Virus record (IMG/VR): IMGVR_UViG_3300023443_000078
Span: 1 to 45,867 of that record
DNA length: 45,867 nt
Source of the DNA: a virus
Strand: one strand, 5' to 3'
In this document: piece after piece, positions 5,386 to 45,383 of the stretch
Numbering within the stretch: the stretch's first letter is position 1
How the letters are laid out: each line of letters opens with the position of its first letter
Position numbers and translations under genes: made by a program
The notes under the pieces: generated by a model
What the model was told of the DNA's origin: nothing
Seen by the model: the letters and a program-made list of their open reading frames with translations, nothing else
Databases searched by the model: none

Positions 5386-7302
5386 TTATCTCTGTGGTGT
5401 AGTTGCGGGAGCAGTGGAAGTAGGAGTAACCACTTGCTCTTTAGGGAAGGTGCTCATGAGTTTGATTATGTGATTACTAACTTCTGTCCTATCCATGAAG
5501 TCTACGATAGTTGTTTTAAGCAGGCCCTCAACAGCAGAAGCTACAGCAGAAGCTACAGCAGCTTCAGTTCCTTTAGTTGCTTTAGTTGCTGTCTTAATTA
5601 CACCTATAGGACCTATGATATCTAATATAACTCCAGTAGTGACCTTTAACCTTTCAAAGGAAGTAGGCTCTCTAAAGAGTACAGCTTTATAAGTTTCCTG
5701 ATTAGGTAATCCTACTCTCCTAAACCCTCCGAACATAGTGTTATTATAGTCAACAGCAGCTGTAAAGATAGTAACTATTCCAGCAGTAGCTTCATCAGGA
5801 GATATAGAGTTGCTTCTTATACCAGCTATTGCAGCTTCCATAATCCTTTGTGGGTTTGTCTCCTTCATAGCCATAGGAGAAAGGACTCTTTTATATAAAG
5901 TAGAATCAGCTACTGCAGCTCTGGTTTCTAGCACAGTCATAGGAGGAGCTTGATACATATTAGTTGTATCGCCTGCTGTAATACCAGAAGCAGCAGTCTT
6001 TGCTAAGTCACTTGCTATAGTATTATAATCAGATTTTATTACAGCATCATCCTTAGGTACGCCATCCTTTCTATACTTCTCCACCTGAACAGTTGCTACT
6101 CTATCTAATAGTCTTGTAGCTGGAGTGCTATCAAAGTTACCTGAAGGAGCTACTATAGATAAAGTCTCACTGGCTTCAAAAGGAGTGCTGCCTAATACAG
6201 GTTGAATAGAGCTTCCTATCTCTAAGAGTTTTCTATACTTAGCTCCTGTGGCTCCAGGCTGATTAAGACCGAAGATTATTCTCTCTCTAGGCTCTATAGC
6301 AAGCCCAGCAGCAGACTGTCCTGATTGCCCTGCATCGCCTAGTTGCTTCTCGATAGTTAATACGTCATTGAATTTCTTAATAGTAGCTGCATTATTAGTT
6401 ATAGCTGCATTTATATCGCCGGGATTAGTTAACTTAGCTGTCTCTAATCTTAAAGCAGCAGCCTCCGCAGCTACCCTAGCGGCAGGTAATGATACCTCCC
6501 ACTCTTTCCTAGCTTGCTCCATCTTCTCTGATTGAAACGCTAGCTGCTTTTCTGCAAACTTCCTCTGTTCAACTTCTCCTTCTATCCTGAATAACTGTAC
6601 CCTATTAGCTACATTCCTAGCACTAGCTGTTTCCATAGCAGCCATTACACTAGCATTAGCATGGATATTCTTTATCTGCTGCTCGGCTGCTTTAACATCT
6701 CCTTCAGCTCCTATGATTCTATAGTTAGCTGCAACAGTTCCTTCATTGAGAGTAGCTTTAGTTAGCGCGTTAACTCTAGCAATAGATTCAGTTGAGGCGG
6801 CAGTATTATTTACTTGCCGTTCTGTATTAGCTAGTTTCGCTTGAGCAGCTGCTAATCTAGTATCTGTTAATTTTAAAGTAAACTTATTCAGCGCGTTATC
6901 TATTATACCAATTCCTGGATCGCCCCTGTCTGTAGAAGCTAAAGCTACCCTCTCAGATAGAATATCCTCCACTCTCTTATTATCTTCAGTGAGCTGTGAT
7001 ATAAGAGCAGCCTGTGCATCAGCGCCTCCTGCTATTTCAAAAGCTTCTATAGTAGCAGTCTGCGCTTGCAAATCTGCATTATCTCTAGCTTTAACTGTGA
7101 TCTGAGTAGCGGCAGTTATATCTGAGATAGAAGCAGTTATCACATCCATTGCTGTCTGTGTCTCTTTAATACCTACCTCAGACTGCTGTATAGTAGATAC
7201 TGTCCTAGCAGTAGATTCAGCTATAGCTTTAGTTATATCATCTATAGAAGTAGTTGGTGTAGTAGCAGGCTCTGCTTGATTTAATATAGGATTGTGCGGC
7301 AT
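5386..7302 (-). CDS. Internal virion protein (T7 gp15-like position)
   Basis: A 638-aa protein, mostly predicted helical, Ala/Thr/Glu-rich with long heptad-like stretches (roughly residues 40-300, many AAE, QLAFQ and ARKEW patterns), consistent with a rod-like internal virion component. It lies immediately upstream of the 1660-aa protein and downstream of two small genes, the same order as the T7 gp13-16 core/ejection genes. Near the C-terminus an ASAV-ASAV tandem is encoded by repeated 12-bp units at about 5543-5570, a likely replication-slippage expansion. No enzymatic motif recognised. Assignment rests on order and composition. Confidence 0.6.
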   Translation of the reverse strand: MPHNPILNQAEPATTPTTSIDDITKAIAESTARTVSTIQQSEVGIKETQTAMDVITASISDITAATQITVKARDNADLQAQTATIEAFEIAGGADAQAALISQLTEDNKRVEDILSERVALASTDRGDPGIGIIDNALNKFTLKLTDTRLAAAQAKLANTERQVNNTAASTESIARVNALTKATLNEGTVAANYRIIGAEGDVKAAEQQIKNIHANASVMAAMETASARNVANRVQLFRIEGEVEQRKFAEKQLAFQSEKMEQARKEWEVSLPAARVAAEAAALRLETAKLTNPGDINAAITNNAATIKKFNDVLTIEKQLGDAGQSGQSAAGLAIEPRERIIFGLNQPGATGAKYRKLLEIGSSIQPVLGSTPFEASETLSIVAPSGNFDSTPATRLLDRVATVQVEKYRKDGVPKDDAVIKSDYNTIASDLAKTAASGITAGDTTNMYQAPPMTVLETRAAVADSTLYKRVLSPMAMKETNPQRIMEAAIAGIRSNSISPDEATAGIVTIFTAAVDYNNTMFGGFRRVGLPNQETYKAVLFREPTSFERLKVTTGVILDIIGPIGVIKTATKATKGTEAAVASAVASAVEGLLKTTIVDFMDRTEVSNHIIKLMSTFPKEQVVTPTSTAPATTPQR

Positions 7303-16872: not shown

Positions 16873-19800
16873 TTAACCTACAATCATTCTGAAATCAGTT
16901 ATAGTAATGTCACCAGATATACCATCACCCACTACTTTAGGGACTATTTCATCTCCGGTAGATACTGTTATCTCTGCCTCAAAGGTTCCTTTAGACGGAG
17001 TCGTGTTAACTACCATCGGCTCATAACCTACAGTATCAGAAGTAGGATCAACATCGTTCTTAGTTACAGCTACTCTAACATTTCCAGAAGATCCAGATCT
17101 TATGATAGTAAATGTAGCTACTACAGGAACCGTTATAGTCTCAATACCGGTGTATATGTAACTGCTTATTTGAGCACTGATCATTCTAAAGTTTTCTGTG
17201 ACTTGTGAGTTTGTAACATTCAATTGACAAGTAGAGTATGTTGTTGCATTACTCGATATAGAAGTAGTTACATTGTTTCCATTTCTCTCAGCAAATATTA
17301 GTGCTTTAGAATCTGCGTTATCACTGAAATTACTAAATGCTTTTATTCTGGGATCTCGCTCATCCAAGCCAACATCTCTTGATAAAGTACCTGTATCAGT
17401 TCCTTCAAATGAATGATTTACTTCTACCTCATTAGTAGTGGAATCAAGCACACGGTAGAAACCGTTATAGAACTGTGAATCAGTTATCTCCGCTGTATCA
17501 CCATTAGAGAAGGAGTTACCAGAAGAAAAGCATAGAATTCTTTTAGAGGCCCAAACCCCTGATTCAGTTGAGCCGAATGGGATATTAGCTACAAATGAAG
17601 TGTTAATAACAACATCGAATACTTTAATTGTTACATTGTAAGCAGTGTTAATTGTAAACCCGGAGATGGTGATTTCTTCTCCCTCGAATAAAAGCGCTGT
17701 ACTAAGAAACTCTGTTAGTCCGCTTCCGTTATCTTGAACGGCTGTGATTGCTTGGCTACTGACAGCACTACCGCTAACTAATGTAAATGCATCTGTTGCT
17801 ACTTGAGTCTGCTTAAATATATTACCAGTAGTAGTTAGGCACTCGCTGACAGCTATTTGAGTAGTAGTAGGAATGTCAGGGTTGAAATCAAATATAGATC
17901 CAGTAGCAGTTAGGTTCCCTCTAATATCCTTAAAGCTATATAGCTCTCCTATAACTCTAGTATTAAAAGTAAATAGCGATCCAGCCATTGCTACGCCATC
18001 TTGGAATACCTTAGTAACAGCTACCTCTCTTGGATTAGTTAGGGTGAGGCCAACTGTAATGTTATCTGCCTCAACTGTGTTAATAATTAAACCGCCATTA
18101 GCTATCTCACCTACATCATCCCAGCCCTCAAGGGTTACTTCTTTCATTATGACTGTTCCAGTTGCTCCTGTCATATCAAATAAAGTGCCTGTACCTACAC
18201 TCTCTAGCTCACATTCTTGAGCAGCAGTAAAAGAGCCTTCGCCACTAATAAGAGTTCCAGCTCCTGAATAGTTAACGCCTACATCGCCTTTATACCTACC
18301 AATGAAAGCTAAAGCAACTCCTGTATTAATTGAGAATACAGATGTACTGACAGGTTTCATATTAAATATGAGTAATGTGTCAGTTGTTACTGTGAGTGTA
18401 CCTCCTGAAAAAAGATCTTCATACTGTGCAGTGTTATTTATTACTCTTATTTCAGGTGGATTAAAGCTTGCTGAATGCCATAGAGTGCTAGAAATGGCCG
18501 CCAAGCTTATATTCAACCCTGATAACTCACCATTATTTATATGATGGAGATCACCAGGGAAGCCAGTTATATGAGTGTTACCATCTCTATTACCTACAAA
18601 CGTTCTATACCCAGCACTGTCAGTACCAGTAGAACTTATTCGTGCAATAGGAATAGTATCGCCAGTACCATCTGAAGCTAGTTCTAAATAATGACTGGCT
18701 ACTCCAACGCCACGGCCAATACTTGTAAAGCCATTACTCTGAGCTCTTATCTGATTACTAATACCGATAAACGTATTCCCGGCAAGTTGATTTAGTTTTA
18801 AATCTCCTCCCTTAGCTCTTACATGGAGAGCAATACCGCTATCTGTACCTTCAGGTACTATATTAACATCTCCTCCGGTATTAGCCATTTCAACTAGTAA
18901 GCCATTAACTGGGGTAGAGGATGTTCTTATACCTAACCCTTCAACTCCATCTACCGCTATGCCAACTCCGGTAATATTTGTAAACAAGCCACTTGAAGTA
19001 TGAGAAGCAAAGTTAATTGAGGGTGCTACGGCTGCACCGTTCTCAACTGTTAGTGCGCCTACTACATTTAAGTCATTACCGTTAAAAGAAGCAGTAGCTA
19101 CATCAATATCTTCAGTTCCATTACCAACTACTACACGCCCAGCTGGTAATGTAACCGAGGTAGTTACATTACCTCCAGCATCTAATGGAGCTGAATAACT
19201 ACCAGATTCATTTAAGAAGTTAGTAGTTGCGCCTCCAGTAGTAAGACTTACTCCATTTACCGAAGTTCCTGTAATGGCCGCATCTAGATTAGCAATAGGA
19301 TTCACAGGATCTGAAGCATCTATAGTTATATTAGTTCCGCTGACTACTGAATCTACTTGTCCTGTATCCGGAGGTACTGAATAAGCTCCTGTCTCATCTA
19401 GAAAGTTAGAAGCGCTACCTCCGGTAGTAATAGCGACACCATTAAAATTACTGGCTGTTACATCCCCCGAAATAACGACCGCTGTACCGGTGGGGCTGAT
19501 GGTCATTACAGTTCCAGCGCCTATATTCACATCACCAGAAACTGTTTGTAGATTTAAAGCGTCTCCTCCTCTTCCACGAACTACAAGCGCAACAGCGGCA
19601 TCTGATCCTACAGGCACTACATTGACAGCGTCCCCCGTGTCAGACATCTCAATTAATAGACCATTTGCAGGAGTTGTAGAGGTTCTTATTCCTAGGCCTT
19701 CAATACCATTAACTGATAGCTCTAACCCTCCTGTTCCATCGACTGATAGCCCAGATGTGAGATGGGATGCGAAATTAACTGATGGCGCTGCAACAGAGCC

Positions 19801-20214
19801 ATTCTCAACAGTTACAGAGCCAGTAAGCGTTAAGTCATCAAAAGTAGGGCTAGCAGTAGTATTTAAGTTCTGTCCGAATTCTAGATCAGTTCCAGCTGAG
19901 TTACCTTGCACAATTAAGTTAGCTGTTATACTTACAGGAGTATCTGTAAGTCCTACCCAATCAGTTGTGCCTGTTCCTCCAGGTACTGAATAAGCACCAG
20001 TTTGATTTAAAAAGCTGGACGCAGCTCCTGTGTCATCAAGTGTTACTCCATTAACTGAAGTACCTGTAACAGCTGCATCTAAGTTTACAATAGGATTTAC
20101 AGGATCGACAGAGTCTACTGTTATATTTGTACCACTGACAACAGAATCTACTTGTCCAGTTCCAGCTCCTCCGCCATTACCTATTCCAGGAACTGAAGGA
20201 AAGTTAGCAGTCAT
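16873..20214 (-). CDS. Large tail fibre-like protein with internal repeats
   Basis: A 1113-aa beta-rich protein. A block starting DSVVSGTNITVDSVDPVNP (residue 23) recurs at about residue 285 (DSVVSGTNITIDASDPVNP), each followed by GTSVNGV and FLN.TG.YS. A second block starting LTVENG with GIRTS.TP.NGLL.EM recurs at about residues 131 and 391. This gives about two tandem units of about 260 residues, like the repeated shaft of fibre proteins with SVNG/GLEL repeats. Residues about 560-760 resemble a beta-helix (many TLVSGEGSF and GGLIINT strands). Residues about 821-890 share the TISGF domain of the 541-aa protein. It is the largest adhesin in the genome. Confidence 0.65.
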   Translation of the reverse strand: MTANFPSVPGIGNGGGAGTGQVDSVVSGTNITVDSVDPVNPIVNLDAAVTGTSVNGVTLDDTGAASSFLNQTGAYSVPGGTGTTDWVGLTDTPVSITANLIVQGNSAGTDLEFGQNLNTTASPTFDDLTLTGSVTVENGSVAAPSVNFASHLTSGLSVDGTGGLELSVNGIEGLGIRTSTTPANGLLIEMSDTGDAVNVVPVGSDAAVALVVRGRGGDALNLQTVSGDVNIGAGTVMTISPTGTAVVISGDVTASNFNGVAITTGGSASNFLDETGAYSVPPDTGQVDSVVSGTNITIDASDPVNPIANLDAAITGTSVNGVSLTTGGATTNFLNESGSYSAPLDAGGNVTTSVTLPAGRVVVGNGTEDIDVATASFNGNDLNVVGALTVENGAAVAPSINFASHTSSGLFTNITGVGIAVDGVEGLGIRTSSTPVNGLLVEMANTGGDVNIVPEGTDSGIALHVRAKGGDLKLNQLAGNTFIGISNQIRAQSNGFTSIGRGVGVASHYLELASDGTGDTIPIARISSTGTDSAGYRTFVGNRDGNTHITGFPGDLHHINNGELSGLNISLAAISSTLWHSASFNPPEIRVINNTAQYEDLFSGGTLTVTTDTLLIFNMKPVSTSVFSINTGVALAFIGRYKGDVGVNYSGAGTLISGEGSFTAAQECELESVGTGTLFDMTGATGTVIMKEVTLEGWDDVGEIANGGLIINTVEADNITVGLTLTNPREVAVTKVFQDGVAMAGSLFTFNTRVIGELYSFKDIRGNLTATGSIFDFNPDIPTTTQIAVSECLTTTGNIFKQTQVATDAFTLVSGSAVSSQAITAVQDNGSGLTEFLSTALLFEGEEITISGFTINTAYNVTIKVFDVVINTSFVANIPFGSTESGVWASKRILCFSSGNSFSNGDTAEITDSQFYNGFYRVLDSTTNEVEVNHSFEGTDTGTLSRDVGLDERDPRIKAFSNFSDNADSKALIFAERNGNNVTTSISSNATTYSTCQLNVTNSQVTENFRMISAQISSYIYTGIETITVPVVATFTIIRSGSSGNVRVAVTKNDVDPTSDTVGYEPMVVNTTPSKGTFEAEITVSTGDEIVPKVVGDGISGDITITDFRMIVG

Positions 20215-29729: not shown

Positions 29730-29778
29730 GGTATTTGGATTTGGCATAATGGCATGATGTCATGATTTGGCATGCTCG

Positions 29779-29807
29779 TGCCATTTTGCCATTTTGCCAT
29801 TTTGCCA
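29779..29807. repeat. Tandem TGCCATTT repeats, 8-bp period
   Basis: TGCCA begins at 29779, 29787, 29795 and 29803, with the preceding bases TT. Three TGGCA half-sites in the opposite orientation lie at 29742, 29750 and 29768. Confidence 0.8.
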
Positions 29808-30144
29808 TTGACTATTTGGGTGTGTATCGGGGTCAATATCGGTCCTTCTGTATCTATCTAACTACTTGTGTATATAACTCTATCTAGCTTCTATCTGTAT
29901 CTCTCTATCTTAGTATGCTTGTATCTATCTCTCTGTATTAGGGTATATCTTATTTCTTATTAAAAATAGCACACACCCCTCTATACCCCTATATCCCAAC
30001 GTATCCCATATGCATGCCCCCTTAGATCTAGCATATAGGGAGCTATAACTAGCTACTATCATACACATACTCTTACCTAACTACTACCATATACAAGGAG
30101 TTAGTTAGGGATAGGAGGGAGGAATATGCACCCATATATACCCC

Positions 30145-30172
30145 TTGACATGCTCTGTCATACTGGTACACT
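30145..30172 (+). promoter_or_regulatory. Promoter TTGACA-N16-TACACT with extended TGN
   Basis: TTGACA (30145-30150) is a perfect -35. TACACT (30167-30172) lies 16 nt away and is preceded by TGG, the extended -10 form. Start predicted near 30179, immediately at the left arm of the 18-bp inverted repeat, upstream of the Cys-rich genes. Confidence 0.6.
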
Positions 30173-30178
30173 GTCATA

Positions 30179-30236
30179 ATGGCACGATGTGTCACGATGT
30201 GTCACGATGTGGCAGGAACGTGACACATCGTGCCAT
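30179..30236. repeat. 18-bp inverted repeat over 10-bp iterons
   Basis: ATGGCACGATGTGTCACG (30179-30196) is the exact reverse complement of 30219-30236, with a 22-bp spacer. CACGATGTGT recurs at 30183, 30193 and (one mismatch, last base) 30203, each one helical turn apart. This is typical of iteron/operator DNA. No T tract follows, so it is not a simple terminator. Confidence 0.8.
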
Positions 30237-30274
30237 GCAATTCACATCAAATCTAACAGAAAGAGTATAAGCTA

Positions 30275-30598
30275 ATGAATATAAAAGACTTGTTTAATAA
30301 GTATACAGAGCTAAAGAAGAGCATAAAGATTAATGATACCTGTACTGATACATGTACTGATACCTGTGATTATTGTATTGGATGTATTGATTGTAATAAT
30401 TGTATAGGATGTACTGAGTGTTATAATTGTAATAATTGTAATAATTGTAATAAATGCGATAATTGTAATAATTGTACTAACTGCATCTTATGTATAGATC
30501 TAAAAAATGTTACTTCTGGCTATTGGTTAATTAATAAGAAAGTTACAGAAGAAGTATATAACGAAGCTAGGGCGCTTTTAAAAGCACACGAGGTATAA
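30275..30598 (+). CDS. Cys-x-x-Cys triplet repeat protein, paralogue 1
   Basis: A 107-aa protein with a Lys-rich helical N-cap (residues 1-22, with ELKKSIKI), Cys at 23, 27 and 31, then Cys at every third residue from 34 to 73 (14 in a row; 17 Cys in all). Asn, Asp, Gly, Ile and Tyr fill the other positions. The C-cap has CILC, GYWLINKK and a helix (EEVYNEARALLK). The next gene has the same N-cap and C-cap with 11 Cys. Similar C-caps (Y-x-I-x-NK-x-Y-x-x-EE-Y) recall Cys-rich proteins of candidate-phyla bacteria (recollection). A metal-binding or solenoid fold is inferred; function unknown. Confidence 0.7.
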   Translation: MNIKDLFNKYTELKKSIKINDTCTDTCTDTCDYCIGCIDCNNCIGCTECYNCNNCNNCNKCDNCNNCTNCILCIDLKNVTSGYWLINKKVTEEVYNEARALLKAHEV

Positions 30599-30602
30599 GC
30601 TA

Positions 30603-30653
30603 ATGAATAAGCAGCACCCCTTCAAATCTAACAGAAAAGGCAATACCTTATGA
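30603..30653 (+). CDS. Short leader ORF (16 aa), duplicate remnant
   Basis: ATG at 30603 opens a 16-codon frame starting MNKQ whose TGA overlaps the ATG (30650) of the second Cys-rich gene as ATGA. The surrounding GTATAAGCTAATGAATA is a copy of the start region of the first Cys-rich gene. So it is probably a decayed duplicate start, possibly used for coupled translation. Weakly supported as a protein. Confidence 0.35.
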   Translation: MNKQHPFKSNRKGNTL

Positions 30654-30907
30654 ATAAACAAGAGCTAAATAAGAAATACTTAGAGCTAAAGAAGAGCATA
30701 AAGATTACTGATAGTTGTTATAGTTGTGATAATTGTAATAGTTGTATTAGTTGTATTAGTTGTTATAATTGTGATAATTGTTATAATTGTGATAATTGTA
30801 TTTTATGCGTAGGACTAGAGAATAAAAATAAAGGGTATTGGCTATTAAATAAAGAGATCAATAGAGAAGACTTTATTGAAGCAAAGGAAATTTTAACTAA
30901 TGACTAA
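30650..30907 (+). CDS. Cys-x-x-Cys triplet repeat protein, paralogue 2
   Basis: An 85-aa paralogue of the preceding gene: N-cap KKYLELKKSIKITDS, then Cys at 23, 26, 29 and on to 53 (11 Cys, period 3 without exception), then CILCVGLENKNKGYWLLNKE and a helix. The leader sequence TCAAATCTAACAGAAA upstream is shared with the first gene. The repeat length differs (11 versus 14 plus 3 Cys) while both caps are kept, so units are gained and lost by slippage of 9-bp DNA repeats such as TGTAATAAT. It overlaps the next gene by 8 bases. No known partner is visible. Confidence 0.7.
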   Translation: MNKQELNKKYLELKKSIKITDSCYSCDNCNSCISCISCYNCDNCYNCDNCILCVGLENKNKGYWLLNKEINREDFIEAKEILTND

Positions 30908-31310
30908 AATACCTAAGTACAGGCCTGTACTAACAGCAGAACAGATAACTTATATACTTTATATGTGTAGAATACAAGAGCCACTGACTGAAGAAGCTAT
31001 GTCAATAATCATTAGCTTAGGTCCATTTAAAGCTAAGATTGATGATAGAGGAATACAAGCGGCTTATGTAGCAGGAAATGCACCTAAAGCATCTATACCA
31101 GCTAACGCTCCTACTAGCGTAGCGCCTTATAACCCTATGGGAAAGACTAAGGAAGAAGTATGGGAAGAGTGCTATAATAAGTGGAATACAGAAGGATCTT
31201 CAGCTTGTTCGCTAAGAGAGATAGAAGGAGCTAATGAGCATAGATATCTAAATGATTTAATGAGTGCTGAAGAAGTAGCAGCATTTGATAAGATATCTTT
31301 TAACTTATAA
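30900..31310 (+). CDS. Hypothetical early protein
   Basis: A 136-aa protein. It opens KYRPVLTAEQITYILYMC, a pattern I recall from unannotated phage proteins that lie before replication genes. Residues 65-90 are an Ala/Pro-rich linker. The C-terminal half is acidic with a WEECYNKW segment. Not membrane-bound. Function unknown. Confidence 0.55.
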   Translation: MTKIPKYRPVLTAEQITYILYMCRIQEPLTEEAMSIIISLGPFKAKIDDRGIQAAYVAGNAPKASIPANAPTSVAPYNPMGKTKEEVWEECYNKWNTEGSSACSLREIEGANEHRYLNDLMSAEEVAAFDKISFNL

Positions 31311-43135: not shown

Positions 43136-44430
43136 GCGAAGGGGAGGAAGACTTCGTATCTCTATACCTACAATACACCTCAGAAACAGAGTGCCCTACT
43201 TTCTTCCACAGATGGACTGCTGTAACTTCTCTCTCAGCATATCTAGGTAGAAGAATCTATTTCAATCACGGTCACTTCACTCTATATCCTAACCTCTATA
43301 CAATGCTTATTGGATCTCCAGGTACCAAGAAGTCATCAGCTATAAAGATAGGAGCTAAGTTACTTAAAAAATCCGGGTATAAAACATTTGCTGCTAAGAA
43401 GACTAGGCAAGAGAAGTTTCTTCTTGATCTTGCAGAACAATCTGAGCGCCTTGATTCCTCTGGAAGTGTAGATTCTGAGAGCTGTCTCTTAGATCAGAAT
43501 CTATGGGGCGAAGATACAGTAGCTCTAGACTGCGCAGATAACTACGTAGGTAAACCTCCTGCTGAGTGCTTCGTAGCAGCAGATGAATTCAATAACTTCA
43601 TAGGTTTAGGTAACACAGATTTCGTATCTATCTTAGGAGAACTGTGGGATTATGAAGGAGTATATGACTATAAGCTTAAGAACTCTAAGTCAGTATTTAT
43701 TCCTGATCCTACTATATCTATCTTAGGAGGTAACACGCCTACTGGATTCTCTCAAGCATTCCCGCCTGAATCTATAGGACAAGGTTTCTTTTCTAGGTTA
43801 CTCCTAGTGTATGGCGAGCCTTCAGGTATAAAGTATACATTTCCTTCACCGCCGAATCTTCTTATACAAGAGCAGCTGATAGCTTACTTGCATAGAATCA
43901 AAACAGAAGTAATAGGTGAGATGATTATGACACCTGAATCTAGGAAGCTATTGGATAAGATATACAGAAGTTGGCCAGGGATAGATGATGTAAGGTTCGA
44001 GCACTATGCTAATCGTAGACTCACGCACCTAATTAAACTATGCCTTGTACTTACAGCTTCTAGATTAGGTAAAAGAATAGAAGTAGCTGATGTAGTAAAG
44101 TCTAATACACTACTGTCCTTTACTGAGCAGCTAATGCCTAAAGCATTAGGAGAGTTTGGTAAGGCTAGGAACTCAGATGTTACTAATAAAATAATGAGTG
44201 CAATAGATACCACAAGTAGGCCATTAACTACACAGGATATATGGAAGGTAGTGCACAATGATCTAGAAGGAAGGAATCAAATGTTTGAAATACTAGGTAA
44301 CTTACAAGTAGCAGAGAAGATACAGTCAGTAGAAGGAGGGTACTTACCTATTAAGAAGGTGATAGAAGAAGGAGTAGATGGGGCAGTCGATTGGACTTTA
44401 CTTACACAAGAAGAGAGGAATATAAGATGA
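43132..44430 (+). CDS. DUF3987-like primase-helicase ATPase
   Basis: A 432-aa P-loop protein. GTG start at 43132 overlaps the previous stop; GAGGA lies before it. Walker A GSPGTKKSSA at residues 61-70, then DEFNNFIG with an acidic Walker B-like segment (ECFVAADEFNNF, about 145-156), and an ILGGNTPTGF sensor-like region (about 198-208). This ordering is that of DUF3987 phage/plasmid replication proteins, often fused to or encoded with primases. It has no clear primase domain here. Likely part of origin melting or fork function. The stop overlaps the next ATG (ATGA). Confidence 0.7.
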   Translation: MSEGEEDFVSLYLQYTSETECPTFFHRWTAVTSLSAYLGRRIYFNHGHFTLYPNLYTMLIGSPGTKKSSAIKIGAKLLKKSGYKTFAAKKTRQEKFLLDLAEQSERLDSSGSVDSESCLLDQNLWGEDTVALDCADNYVGKPPAECFVAADEFNNFIGLGNTDFVSILGELWDYEGVYDYKLKNSKSVFIPDPTISILGGNTPTGFSQAFPPESIGQGFFSRLLLVYGEPSGIKYTFPSPPNLLIQEQLIAYLHRIKTEVIGEMIMTPESRKLLDKIYRSWPGIDDVRFEHYANRRLTHLIKLCLVLTASRLGKRIEVADVVKSNTLLSFTEQLMPKALGEFGKARNSDVTNKIMSAIDTTSRPLTTQDIWKVVHNDLEGRNQMFEILGNLQVAEKIQSVEGGYLPIKKVIEEGVDGAVDWTLLTQEERNIR

Positions 44431-45383
44431 ATGAGATCACACGAAAGAAAACAGCTTTGGTGGCATATCATGCAAACTGCATAGATGGATTCACATCAGC
44501 TTGGGTAACATTTAGCGCACTAGATAAGGAGGGGTATGAGATAGAGCTGCTAGCTATGAACTATGATGAGGACAGTGTAGGTTTATTAAAAGCACACTTA
44601 AATGATAAGCGCTATGATCAGCTATGGATAGTAGACTACTCACTAGATGTAGATGTATTAGAAGCCATAGCAAAAGCTAATATTGATACTAACATCACCA
44701 TATTAGATCACCATAAGACTGCATTTGAGAAGTATAATCCAGGAATAGAAGTAACGCCTACCTCTAAGCTAACCACTTATAAGCATGGAGCGTCTATATT
44801 CTTAGATAATGCAGAGTGTGGAGCTTCAGTATGTTATAGGTATTTTCATGGTAACGCTGCTCCTCTACCTAAGATAATTAAGTACGTAAAAGATTATGAT
44901 CTATGGCGGTATAAATATGGAGATGAGACTAAGCATGTTAATAAATATCTGAGATCTTATTCTCAATCTATAGCCTGCTTGGATCATATAGCAACTATGA
45001 TGGAAACAGAAGAGGGGCTGGAAGAAATATTAGAAGAAGGGATGCACTTGCAAAAAGAACATGATGCCGGAGTAAATGAGCTAGTAGCAAAGTGCCTGCC
45101 AGTTACTTTCTTTGCCATCCCCGGACTATGTGTAGCAGCACCTAAAGAATTCAGTTCAGATGTAGGTAATCTCTTAGCTAAGAAATGTAAGACCTTTGGA
45201 GCAACCTATAGTGTAGATGTAAAAGCTAATAAGATCCATTGGAGTCTGAGAAGTATAGGAGACTTTGACGTATCTGCTATAGCTAAGAGGCATGGAGGAG
45301 GCGGACATAAGAATGCAGCCGGCTTTAGTATTGAGCGTACTGGATTCACAGCTACTGTATTAGAAAAGGAAACTAAGGTATGA
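44427..45383 (+). CDS. NrnB-like DHH/DHHA1 phosphoesterase
   Basis: A 318-aa enzyme. I chose ATG at 44427 (gagagg upstream, ATGA overlap) over a TTG start 36 bases earlier. Motifs: YHANCIDGFTSAW (about residues 13-25) with the metal-binding His/Asp; VDYS (about 65-68); LDHHKTA (about 91-97, the DHH motif); and RHGGGGHKNAAGF (near the C-terminus, DHHA1). HANC.DG resembles NrnB-type enzymes. They cleave short RNA/DNA or nucleotide dimers. The role in infection may be nucleotide salvage or degrading defence signals, not shown. Confidence 0.8.
   Translation: MNEITRKKTALVAYHANCIDGFTSAWVTFSALDKEGYEIELLAMNYDEDSVGLLKAHLNDKRYDQLWIVDYSLDVDVLEAIAKANIDTNITILDHHKTAFEKYNPGIEVTPTSKLTTYKHGASIFLDNAECGASVCYRYFHGNAAPLPKIIKYVKDYDLWRYKYGDETKHVNKYLRSYSQSIACLDHIATMMETEEGLEEILEEGMHLQKEHDAGVNELVAKCLPVTFFAIPGLCVAAPKEFSSDVGNLLAKKCKTFGATYSVDVKANKIHWSLRSIGDFDVSAIAKRHGGGGHKNAAGFSIERTGFTATVLEKETKV

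What the first reader, a model, noticed from the sequence alone, without database searches (positions are those of the whole stretch)
30275..30907. Paired Cys-every-third-residue repeat proteins with conserved caps
Two adjacent paralogues carry runs of 14 and 11 Cys with strict period three, between the same N-cap and C-cap. A three-residue period is unlike zinc fingers, metallothioneins or pentapeptide repeats and suggests a solenoid that stacks Cys (metal, Fe-S or disulfide ladder). The unit count varies while caps are conserved, so the array is the functional part. The C-cap recalls Cys-rich proteins of candidate-phyla bacteria (memory, not checked). No partner enzyme is visible, so this may be a new kind of phage metal or redox protein.
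Basis: partly seen in the sequence, partly recalled or inferred. Interest (0 to 1): 0.78.

Follow-up and report, generated by a model that had tools for sequence, protein, structure and literature searches.

The report
Phage proteins with stacked-cysteine coils
Two neighbouring phage genes encode tiny proteins with a cysteine at every third position; they most likely fold into a tight 12-residue coil with the cysteines packed inside, a rigid rod that phages swap for other known repeat rods, and they belong to a wide, barely described family rather than being a proven metal or redox protein.

Summary
In detail: two adjacent paralogues (107 and 85 aa) carry 15 (not 14) and 11 cysteines in strict period three between matching caps. 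It is far beyond chance (longest run in 100 shuffles: 4). In those proteins the every-third-residue core is Cys, Ser, Leu, Val, Thr, Ala or Ile (3% polar) and surface conservation repeats every 12 residues. AlphaFold predicts a narrow beta-solenoid; the only structural match (weak) is the 12-residue-coil beetle antifreeze protein, whose inward residues are also period three. In other phages the array sits on the same C-terminal domains that elsewhere carry pentapeptide or hexapeptide solenoids. So: a Cys-cored beta-solenoid, cargo in a variable early slot, most likely a rigid binding scaffold. A metal or redox role is neither shown nor excluded: phage arrays keep Cys at 99% of core sites, more than packing alone seems to need. 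Ice binding is unlikely. Function is inferred, not shown.

The parts
30179..30236 (.). 18-bp perfect inverted repeat (arms 30179-30196 and 30219-30236) just upstream of the pair; candidate terminator or operator of the early region
30247..30274 (+). leader of gene 1, duplicated at 30622-30649 (part of a 97-nt repeat, 77% identical, that runs into the N-caps)
30275..30598 (+). gene 1, P0001, 107 aa, 17 Cys
30275..30340 (+). N-cap of P0001 (aa 1-22), predicted helix aa 3-16
30341..30367 (+). CTDTCTDTC entry, Cys spacing four (aa 23-31); the beetle antifreeze protein has an early stretch with Cys at spacings 3, 4, 3, 3
30365..30493 (+). 15-Cys strict period-three array (aa 31-73), predicted short strands every six residues, pLDDT about 80
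30494..30595 (+). C-cap of P0001 (aa 74-107): IDLKN...GYWLINK hairpin and predicted helix 92-105, like the Patescibacteria cap
30650..30907 (+). gene 2, P0002, 85 aa, 11 Cys; overlaps the start of the next gene
30650..30715 (+). N-cap of P0002 (aa 1-22)
30716..30808 (+). 11-Cys strict period-three array (aa 23-53)
30809..30904 (+). C-cap of P0002 (aa 54-85): VGLENKNKGYWLLNKEINREDF
30900..31310 (+). next gene (136 aa, unknown), overlapping P0002; conserved in related phages next to the variable slot

Best explanation
Each gene encodes a small soluble Cys-cored beta-solenoid. Four C-x-x triplets make one 12-residue coil; every third side chain points inward, so the core is a column of Cys; the other two positions of each triplet face out; a helical N-cap and a hairpin-helix C-cap seal the ends. 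Coils are gained and lost as in-frame 9-bp units. The likely job is that of other solenoid scaffolds: a rigid rod whose Asn/Asp/Tyr/Ile/Ser-rich surface binds a partner macromolecule, made early as cargo in a variable slot of the phage genome. The Cys act mainly as tightly packing thiols, not as a catalytic or metal centre. Shown by sequence: array, caps, family, slot, domain exchange. Supported by prediction: the fold. Inferred: coil length in the phage arrays (measured only in the bacterial relatives), early expression (from gene position), binding role, reduced state of the Cys.
For: (1) 12-residue coil: in 53 Patescibacteria-type relatives conservation of surface positions autocorrelates at lag 12 (r 0.60, z 4.4) and 24, anticorrelates at 6 and 18; with all positions z 5.6 in solenoid 1 and 4.1 in solenoid 2. 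(2) Every third position there is C 41%, S 20%, L 10%, V 7%, T 5%, only 3% charged or amide, so the Cys site is a packing site. (3) AlphaFold of P0001: array pLDDT about 80, strand every six residues; of the bacterial relative: mean pLDDT 87, pTM 0.88. (4) The only PDB match of P0001 with Z of 2 or more is 1ezg, the beetle antifreeze solenoid (Z 4.7, rmsd 3.4 over 66 residues), with 12-residue coils (PMC7033094) and Cys/Ala/Ser at every third residue. (5) Exchange of solenoids: the C-terminal domain of array proteins L087, L007, L066, L104 is also on a pentapeptide protein (EBPR siphovirus 1) and hexapeptide proteins (phiRM10, BF766P1); that of L086 and L339 is on pentapeptide proteins of Caulobacter, Acinetobacter and spring phages. 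(6) Relatives keep TerS - variable slot - 30900 homologue - Dda helicase; L339 has a pentapeptide protein in that slot and a Cys array just past the 30900 homologue. (7) Between neighbouring units synonymous change is far below saturation (58 observed, 370 expected) while 59-68% of outward codons differ in residue: young units with varied surfaces.
Against: The P0001 model is only moderate (mean pLDDT 71, pTM 0.54) and Z 4.7 lies in the noise range that the tool states; Foldseek E was 1.9. Phage arrays keep Cys at 1337 of 1350 flanked core sites, stricter than the 41% in the bacterial relatives, so Cys chemistry may matter. Unit-to-unit correlation in phage arrays gives no clear lag-12 signal (best lag 18, z 3.5). 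No partner or phenotype is known. The varied surfaces may reflect shuffling of a few unit types rather than selection.
Confidence: 0.5

Rival explanations
1. Metal-thiolate protein: the column of four Cys per coil binds Zn, Cu, Cd or Fe-S clusters, for storage, sequestration or electron transfer during infection.
For: Core Cys at 99% in phage arrays; C-x-x-C spacing fits metal knuckles (established knowledge); the bacterial relatives also carry terminal CxxC pairs that look like zinc ribbons.
Against: In the bacterial relatives the same core positions are Ser, Leu, Val, Thr, Ala or Ile in most cells; the rare non-Cys core residues in phage arrays are mostly Leu and Ser; no His; no metal enzyme or transporter recognised among the neighbouring ORFs scanned; no Pfam or NCBIfam metal family.
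Confidence: 0.17
2. Disulfide ladder: the Cys pair across the coil as in the beetle antifreeze protein and make a very stable rod in an oxidising place (after lysis, or in a periplasm or virion).
For: Best structural match is a disulfide-cored solenoid (disulfides of 1ezg are established knowledge); opposite inward Cys would be close in such a coil.
Against: No evident signal peptide in either protein (by eye); Cys totals are odd in 23 of 40 complete phage members, including both window proteins (17 and 11), so full pairing is not selected; the genes stand with the replication genes rather than the structural genes in this phage.
Confidence: 0.15
3. Ice-binding protein, as a Vibrio phage relative is annotated ('insect antifreeze protein').
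For: Annotation NVP1238B_69, InterPro IPR016133; fold match 1ezg.
Against: The ice-binding motif TCT is 2 of 1734 Cys contexts in the phage arrays, both inside the spacing-four entry of P0001; flanks are mostly D, N, G, S, Y.
Confidence: 0.03
4. No protein function: a 9-bp DNA repeat expanded by slippage that happens to be open.
For: Units are copied recently and arrays vary in length.
Against: Cys fixed while neighbouring codons differ; caps conserved across paralogues and relatives; same frame used in dozens of phages with different caps and domains.
Confidence: 0.03

Closest known systems
Beetle (Tenebrio molitor) antifreeze protein, PDB 1ezg, InterPro IPR016133
   Same: 12-residue coil, Cys/Ala/Ser in register at every third residue, Cys in the core, an early stretch of irregular Cys spacing
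   Different: Only every second such residue is Cys (others Ala or Ser); has the TCT ice-binding face, which the phage arrays lack; no detectable sequence homology beyond composition (phmmer domain score negative)
PHROG 15341 (unknown function)
   Same: Profile matches P0001 (1.4e-8), P0002 (4.2e-6) and the other array proteins tried
   Different: Match covers mainly the array; the window caps are not part of it; Cys bias inflates the score
~580-aa 'CQNCKKEF' proteins of Patescibacteria ('Caib/baif family protein' in some records, e.g. the BFVD hit H6SUK4; a name without support here)
   Same: Same C-cap C..C..C[VI].L.N..Y.[IL][FL]NK.[YV][TS]KEE[YW] after a period-three array; tandem paralogues
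   Different: Large, two solenoids plus terminal CxxC domains, and mixed rather than all-Cys core; cap loop two residues shorter
Pentapeptide-repeat and left-handed hexapeptide-repeat phage proteins
   Same: Occupy the same position in front of the same C-terminal domains and, in L339, a neighbouring place
   Different: Different repeat length (5 or 6 residues) and core residues; no Cys core
Metallothioneins and zinc ribbons
   Same: Cys-rich, C-x-x-C spacing
   Different: No shared profile; period-three array with interchangeable small and aliphatic core residues in relatives

Membership tests
Insect Cys-rich antifreeze family (IPR016133) | 12-residue TCTxSxxCxxAx repeat with TxT ice-binding ladder | tested here: not met
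   TCT in 2 of 1734 Cys contexts; nearly all inward sites Cys
Insect Cys-rich antifreeze family (IPR016133) | 12-residue beta-solenoid coil with period-three inward residues | tested here: inconclusive
   Model best match 1ezg, Z 4.7; lag 12 shown in bacterial relatives only
Insect Cys-rich antifreeze family (IPR016133) | Core disulfides and ice binding | not testable with these tools
   needs biochemistry
Pentapeptide repeat (PF00805) | A[DN]LxX five-residue repeat | tested here: not met
   Pfam scan finds none; period is three
Left-handed hexapeptide beta-helix | [LIV]-[GAED]-x2-[STAV]-x hexapeptide repeat | tested here: not met
   period three with Cys; no Pfam hexapeptide match
Left-handed hexapeptide beta-helix | 18-residue coil | tested here: inconclusive
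   coil of 12 in the bacterial relatives; phage arrays themselves show a weak lag-18 signal
PHROG 15341 | match to profile | tested here: met
   mainly the array region
Patescibacteria CQNC/'Caib-baif' family | C-cap after Cys triplets | tested here: met
   HMM of cap plus last Cys: P0001 30.5 bits, P0002 23.9, best of 2000 cap-shuffled controls 19.0; P0002's best single domain is weak, and the cap alone is not significant for either
Patescibacteria CQNC/'Caib-baif' family | terminal CxxC domains and ~580 aa length | tested here: not met
   window proteins are 85 and 107 aa
Metallothionein or zinc-binding family | match to a known metal-binding family | tested here: not met
   no Pfam or NCBIfam match above cut-off
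Metallothionein or zinc-binding family | bound metal | not testable with these tools
   needs ICP-MS

The most novel reading that the evidence does not exclude
The all-Cys core is functional chemistry: a stack of four thiols per coil that forms a one-dimensional metal-thiolate or redox wire, made by phages (and, in mixed form, by candidate-phyla bacteria), with capacity set by the number of 9-bp units.
Probability: 0.15. Interest if true: 0.88.

Novelty: new variant of a known kind. Interest (0 to 1): 0.55.

Why it matters
It ties together three unlinked, poorly annotated sets (PHROG 15341 arrays, a phage gene called 'insect antifreeze protein', and the large 'Caib/baif' proteins of candidate-phyla bacteria) as one kind of Cys-cored beta-solenoid, and shows that phages exchange it with pentapeptide and hexapeptide solenoids on shared end domains. 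A triplet would be an extremely short solenoid unit, with a core that can be all thiol, and the Patescibacteria proteins, present in several neighbouring copies, get a testable fold.

Tried and rejected
Diversity-generating retroelement (outward codons of the window vary at A positions of AAT, Cys codons hold no A): no reverse transcriptase in the record, and Ser at the second outward site uses TCN as well as AGY in the family, so this is residue-level selection. tblastn of P0001/P0002 in isolated phages: no match, probably because low-complexity filtering removes the array. Pattern with the GYW cap in viral contigs: four chance matches. PDB sequence search: only compositional matches. Structure match of the bacterial relative's second solenoid to GlmU-type left-handed helices (Z 5.6) is not trusted, since conservation there also repeats at 12, not 18. 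Defence-protein library: nothing. Parity and modulo-four of Cys number: no clear signal. Literature: no paper found on a Cys-triplet solenoid in the held open-access library; PMC4736985 reports large Cys-rich extracellular proteins in Peribacteria, with signal peptides and an average length of 1655 aa, so apparently a different set.

Full report
OBSERVATION. The two ORFs exist as described, with one correction: the first run has 15, not 14, Cys in strict period three, and 17 Cys in all. The longest such run in 100 shuffles of the window was 4. The pair arose by duplication that included the leader (97 nt, 77% identical). Gene 2 overlaps the next gene.

SETTING. The window is a 45.9-kb virus record. 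Portal, terminase, tail spike, DNA polymerase, primase, exonuclease, Sak4-like and Dda-like helicase are recognisable, and its nearest isolated relatives are podovirus-like phages (Polaromonas phage Tiera, EBPR podovirus 3, Pseudomonas 119X/PaMx group). Structural genes run left, replication genes right; the arrays are near the start of the rightward block. In related phages (terminase up to 82% identical) the order TerS - variable slot - homologue of 30900 - homologue of 31539 - Dda helicase is kept, and the slot holds other genes. The Cys arrays are absent from the relatives read across the slot, apart from L339, which has a pentapeptide protein before and a Cys-triplet protein after its 30900 homologue. 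The arrays are therefore accessory cargo.

FAMILY. Many of these are chance or wrong-frame readings, but about 40 loci hold clear proteins with recognisable caps. Arrays run to 53 strict units and often occur as neighbouring paralogues. A pattern for Cys triplets followed by C[VI].L.N found, in one genome per species, mostly Patescibacteria (Nomurabacteria, Peregrinibacteria, Gracilibacteria and others), with some Myxococcota and Bdellovibrionales. These are ~580-aa proteins with CxxC ends, two solenoids, and tandem copies. An HMM of their cap with the last Cys scores P0001 at 30.5 bits and P0002 at 23.9, against at most 19.0 for 2000 cap-shuffled controls. The cap alone (no Cys) scores three phage relatives (L067, L139, L136) at 19-23 bits against at most 10.6 for shuffles, but is not significant for P0001 or P0002. 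So the link is firm for the group and moderate for the window pair.

FOLD. Two independent lines agree. First, prediction: P0001 gives short strands every six residues with pLDDT near 80 in the array, helical N- and C-ends, and its only PDB match with Z of 2 or more is the beetle antifreeze protein 1ezg (Z 4.7, 66 residues, rmsd 3.4), a weak value by itself. Read in register, the antifreeze sequence has C-A-C-S-C-A-C-S at every third residue, and an early stretch with Cys at spacings 3, 4, 3, 3, much like the CTDTCTDTC entry of P0001. Second, without any model: in 53 aligned bacterial relatives the period-three phase is C/S/L/V/T/A/I with 3% polar residues, and conservation of the remaining positions repeats at 12 and 24 residues; both solenoids show lag 12. 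Four triplets per coil follow. The relative's own model is confident overall (pLDDT 87, pTM 0.88).

EXCHANGE OF SOLENOIDS. Array proteins carry C-terminal domains that also follow classical solenoids. The GSRN...CGCF domain is on Cys arrays (L087, L007, L066, L104), on a pentapeptide array (EBPR siphovirus 1 gp3) and on hexapeptide arrays (phiRM10, BF766P1). The W...GCQ.HS...W...FW domain is on Cys arrays (L086, L339) and on pentapeptide arrays (Caulobacter phage Jess A, Acinetobacter phage Acba_16, a spring podovirus). The array is thus used as one of several interchangeable rods. The window proteins themselves have neither of these domains, so for them this is an argument by family.

WHAT THE CYS DO. 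For packing: interchange with Ser, Leu, Val, Thr, Ala and Ile in the bacterial relatives, and the few non-Cys core residues in phage arrays being mostly Leu and Ser. For chemistry: 1337 of 1350 flanked core sites in phage arrays are Cys. Against a strict disulfide ladder: odd totals in 23 of 40 complete members. Against ice binding: TCT in 2 of 1734 contexts, although a Vibrio phage relative is annotated as insect antifreeze protein. The metal reading stays open but has no positive evidence.

SURFACE. Neighbouring units differ in outward residues in 59% (first) and 68% (second) of pairs, while synonymous differences are far below codon-usage saturation: 130 observed against 311 expected for Cys codons, 58 against 370 for outward codons of the same residue. 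Units are young and their surfaces varied. This fits a binding scaffold but could come from shuffling of a few unit types. The residue before each Cys is mostly D, N, G, S, Y, R or H, as expected of a tight turn.

VERDICT. A real, widespread and nearly undescribed family of Cys-cored beta-solenoids (fold, about 0.7), used by this phage as accessory cargo beside its replication genes, most likely as a rigid binding scaffold (about 0.5 for the joint statement). It is a new variant of a known kind, the tight beta-solenoid.

Noticed in passing
L271 (Flavobacterium phage FL-1, KY421186.2) 882-1598: A Cys-triplet array protein lies in a frame that is not annotated; the record annotates another frame of the same DNA (APVAPIAP...) and the downstream domain as a separate ORF, which suggests a frameshift or sequencing error.
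   Followed up: partly
L272 (Vibrio phage 1.238.B, NVP1238B_69) 2501-2875: A Cys-triplet protein is annotated 'insect antifreeze protein' from InterPro IPR016133; it lacks the TCT ice-binding motif.
   Followed up: yes
window 29740-29810 and 30160-30240: Long non-coding stretch with short direct repeats (TTTGCCAT, TGTCACGATG) and a perfect 18-bp inverted repeat between the two divergent gene blocks; probably regulatory.
   Followed up: no
L223, L215, L250, L209, L184 (Patescibacteria): Two to five neighbouring ~580-aa Cys-rich solenoid paralogues in single 8-kb stretches: a large unexplained gene family of these tiny genomes.
   Followed up: partly
L339 1494-1922 and 123-815: In a related phage a pentapeptide-repeat gene and a Cys-triplet gene stand on either side of the homologue of window ORF 30900.
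   Followed up: yes
window 44391-45383: 330-aa protein with a C-terminal DHHA1 domain (Pfam 1.3e-8), probably a DHH-type nuclease or phosphoesterase.
   Followed up: no
window 16873-20214 and 5386-7302 (- strand): Large proteins (1113 and 638 aa) with no PHROG match at E 0.001.
   Followed up: no
phage arrays in general: Neighbouring units show many residue changes but few synonymous ones, also in long arrays with only three or four unit types in irregular order (for example L041, L127).
   Followed up: partly
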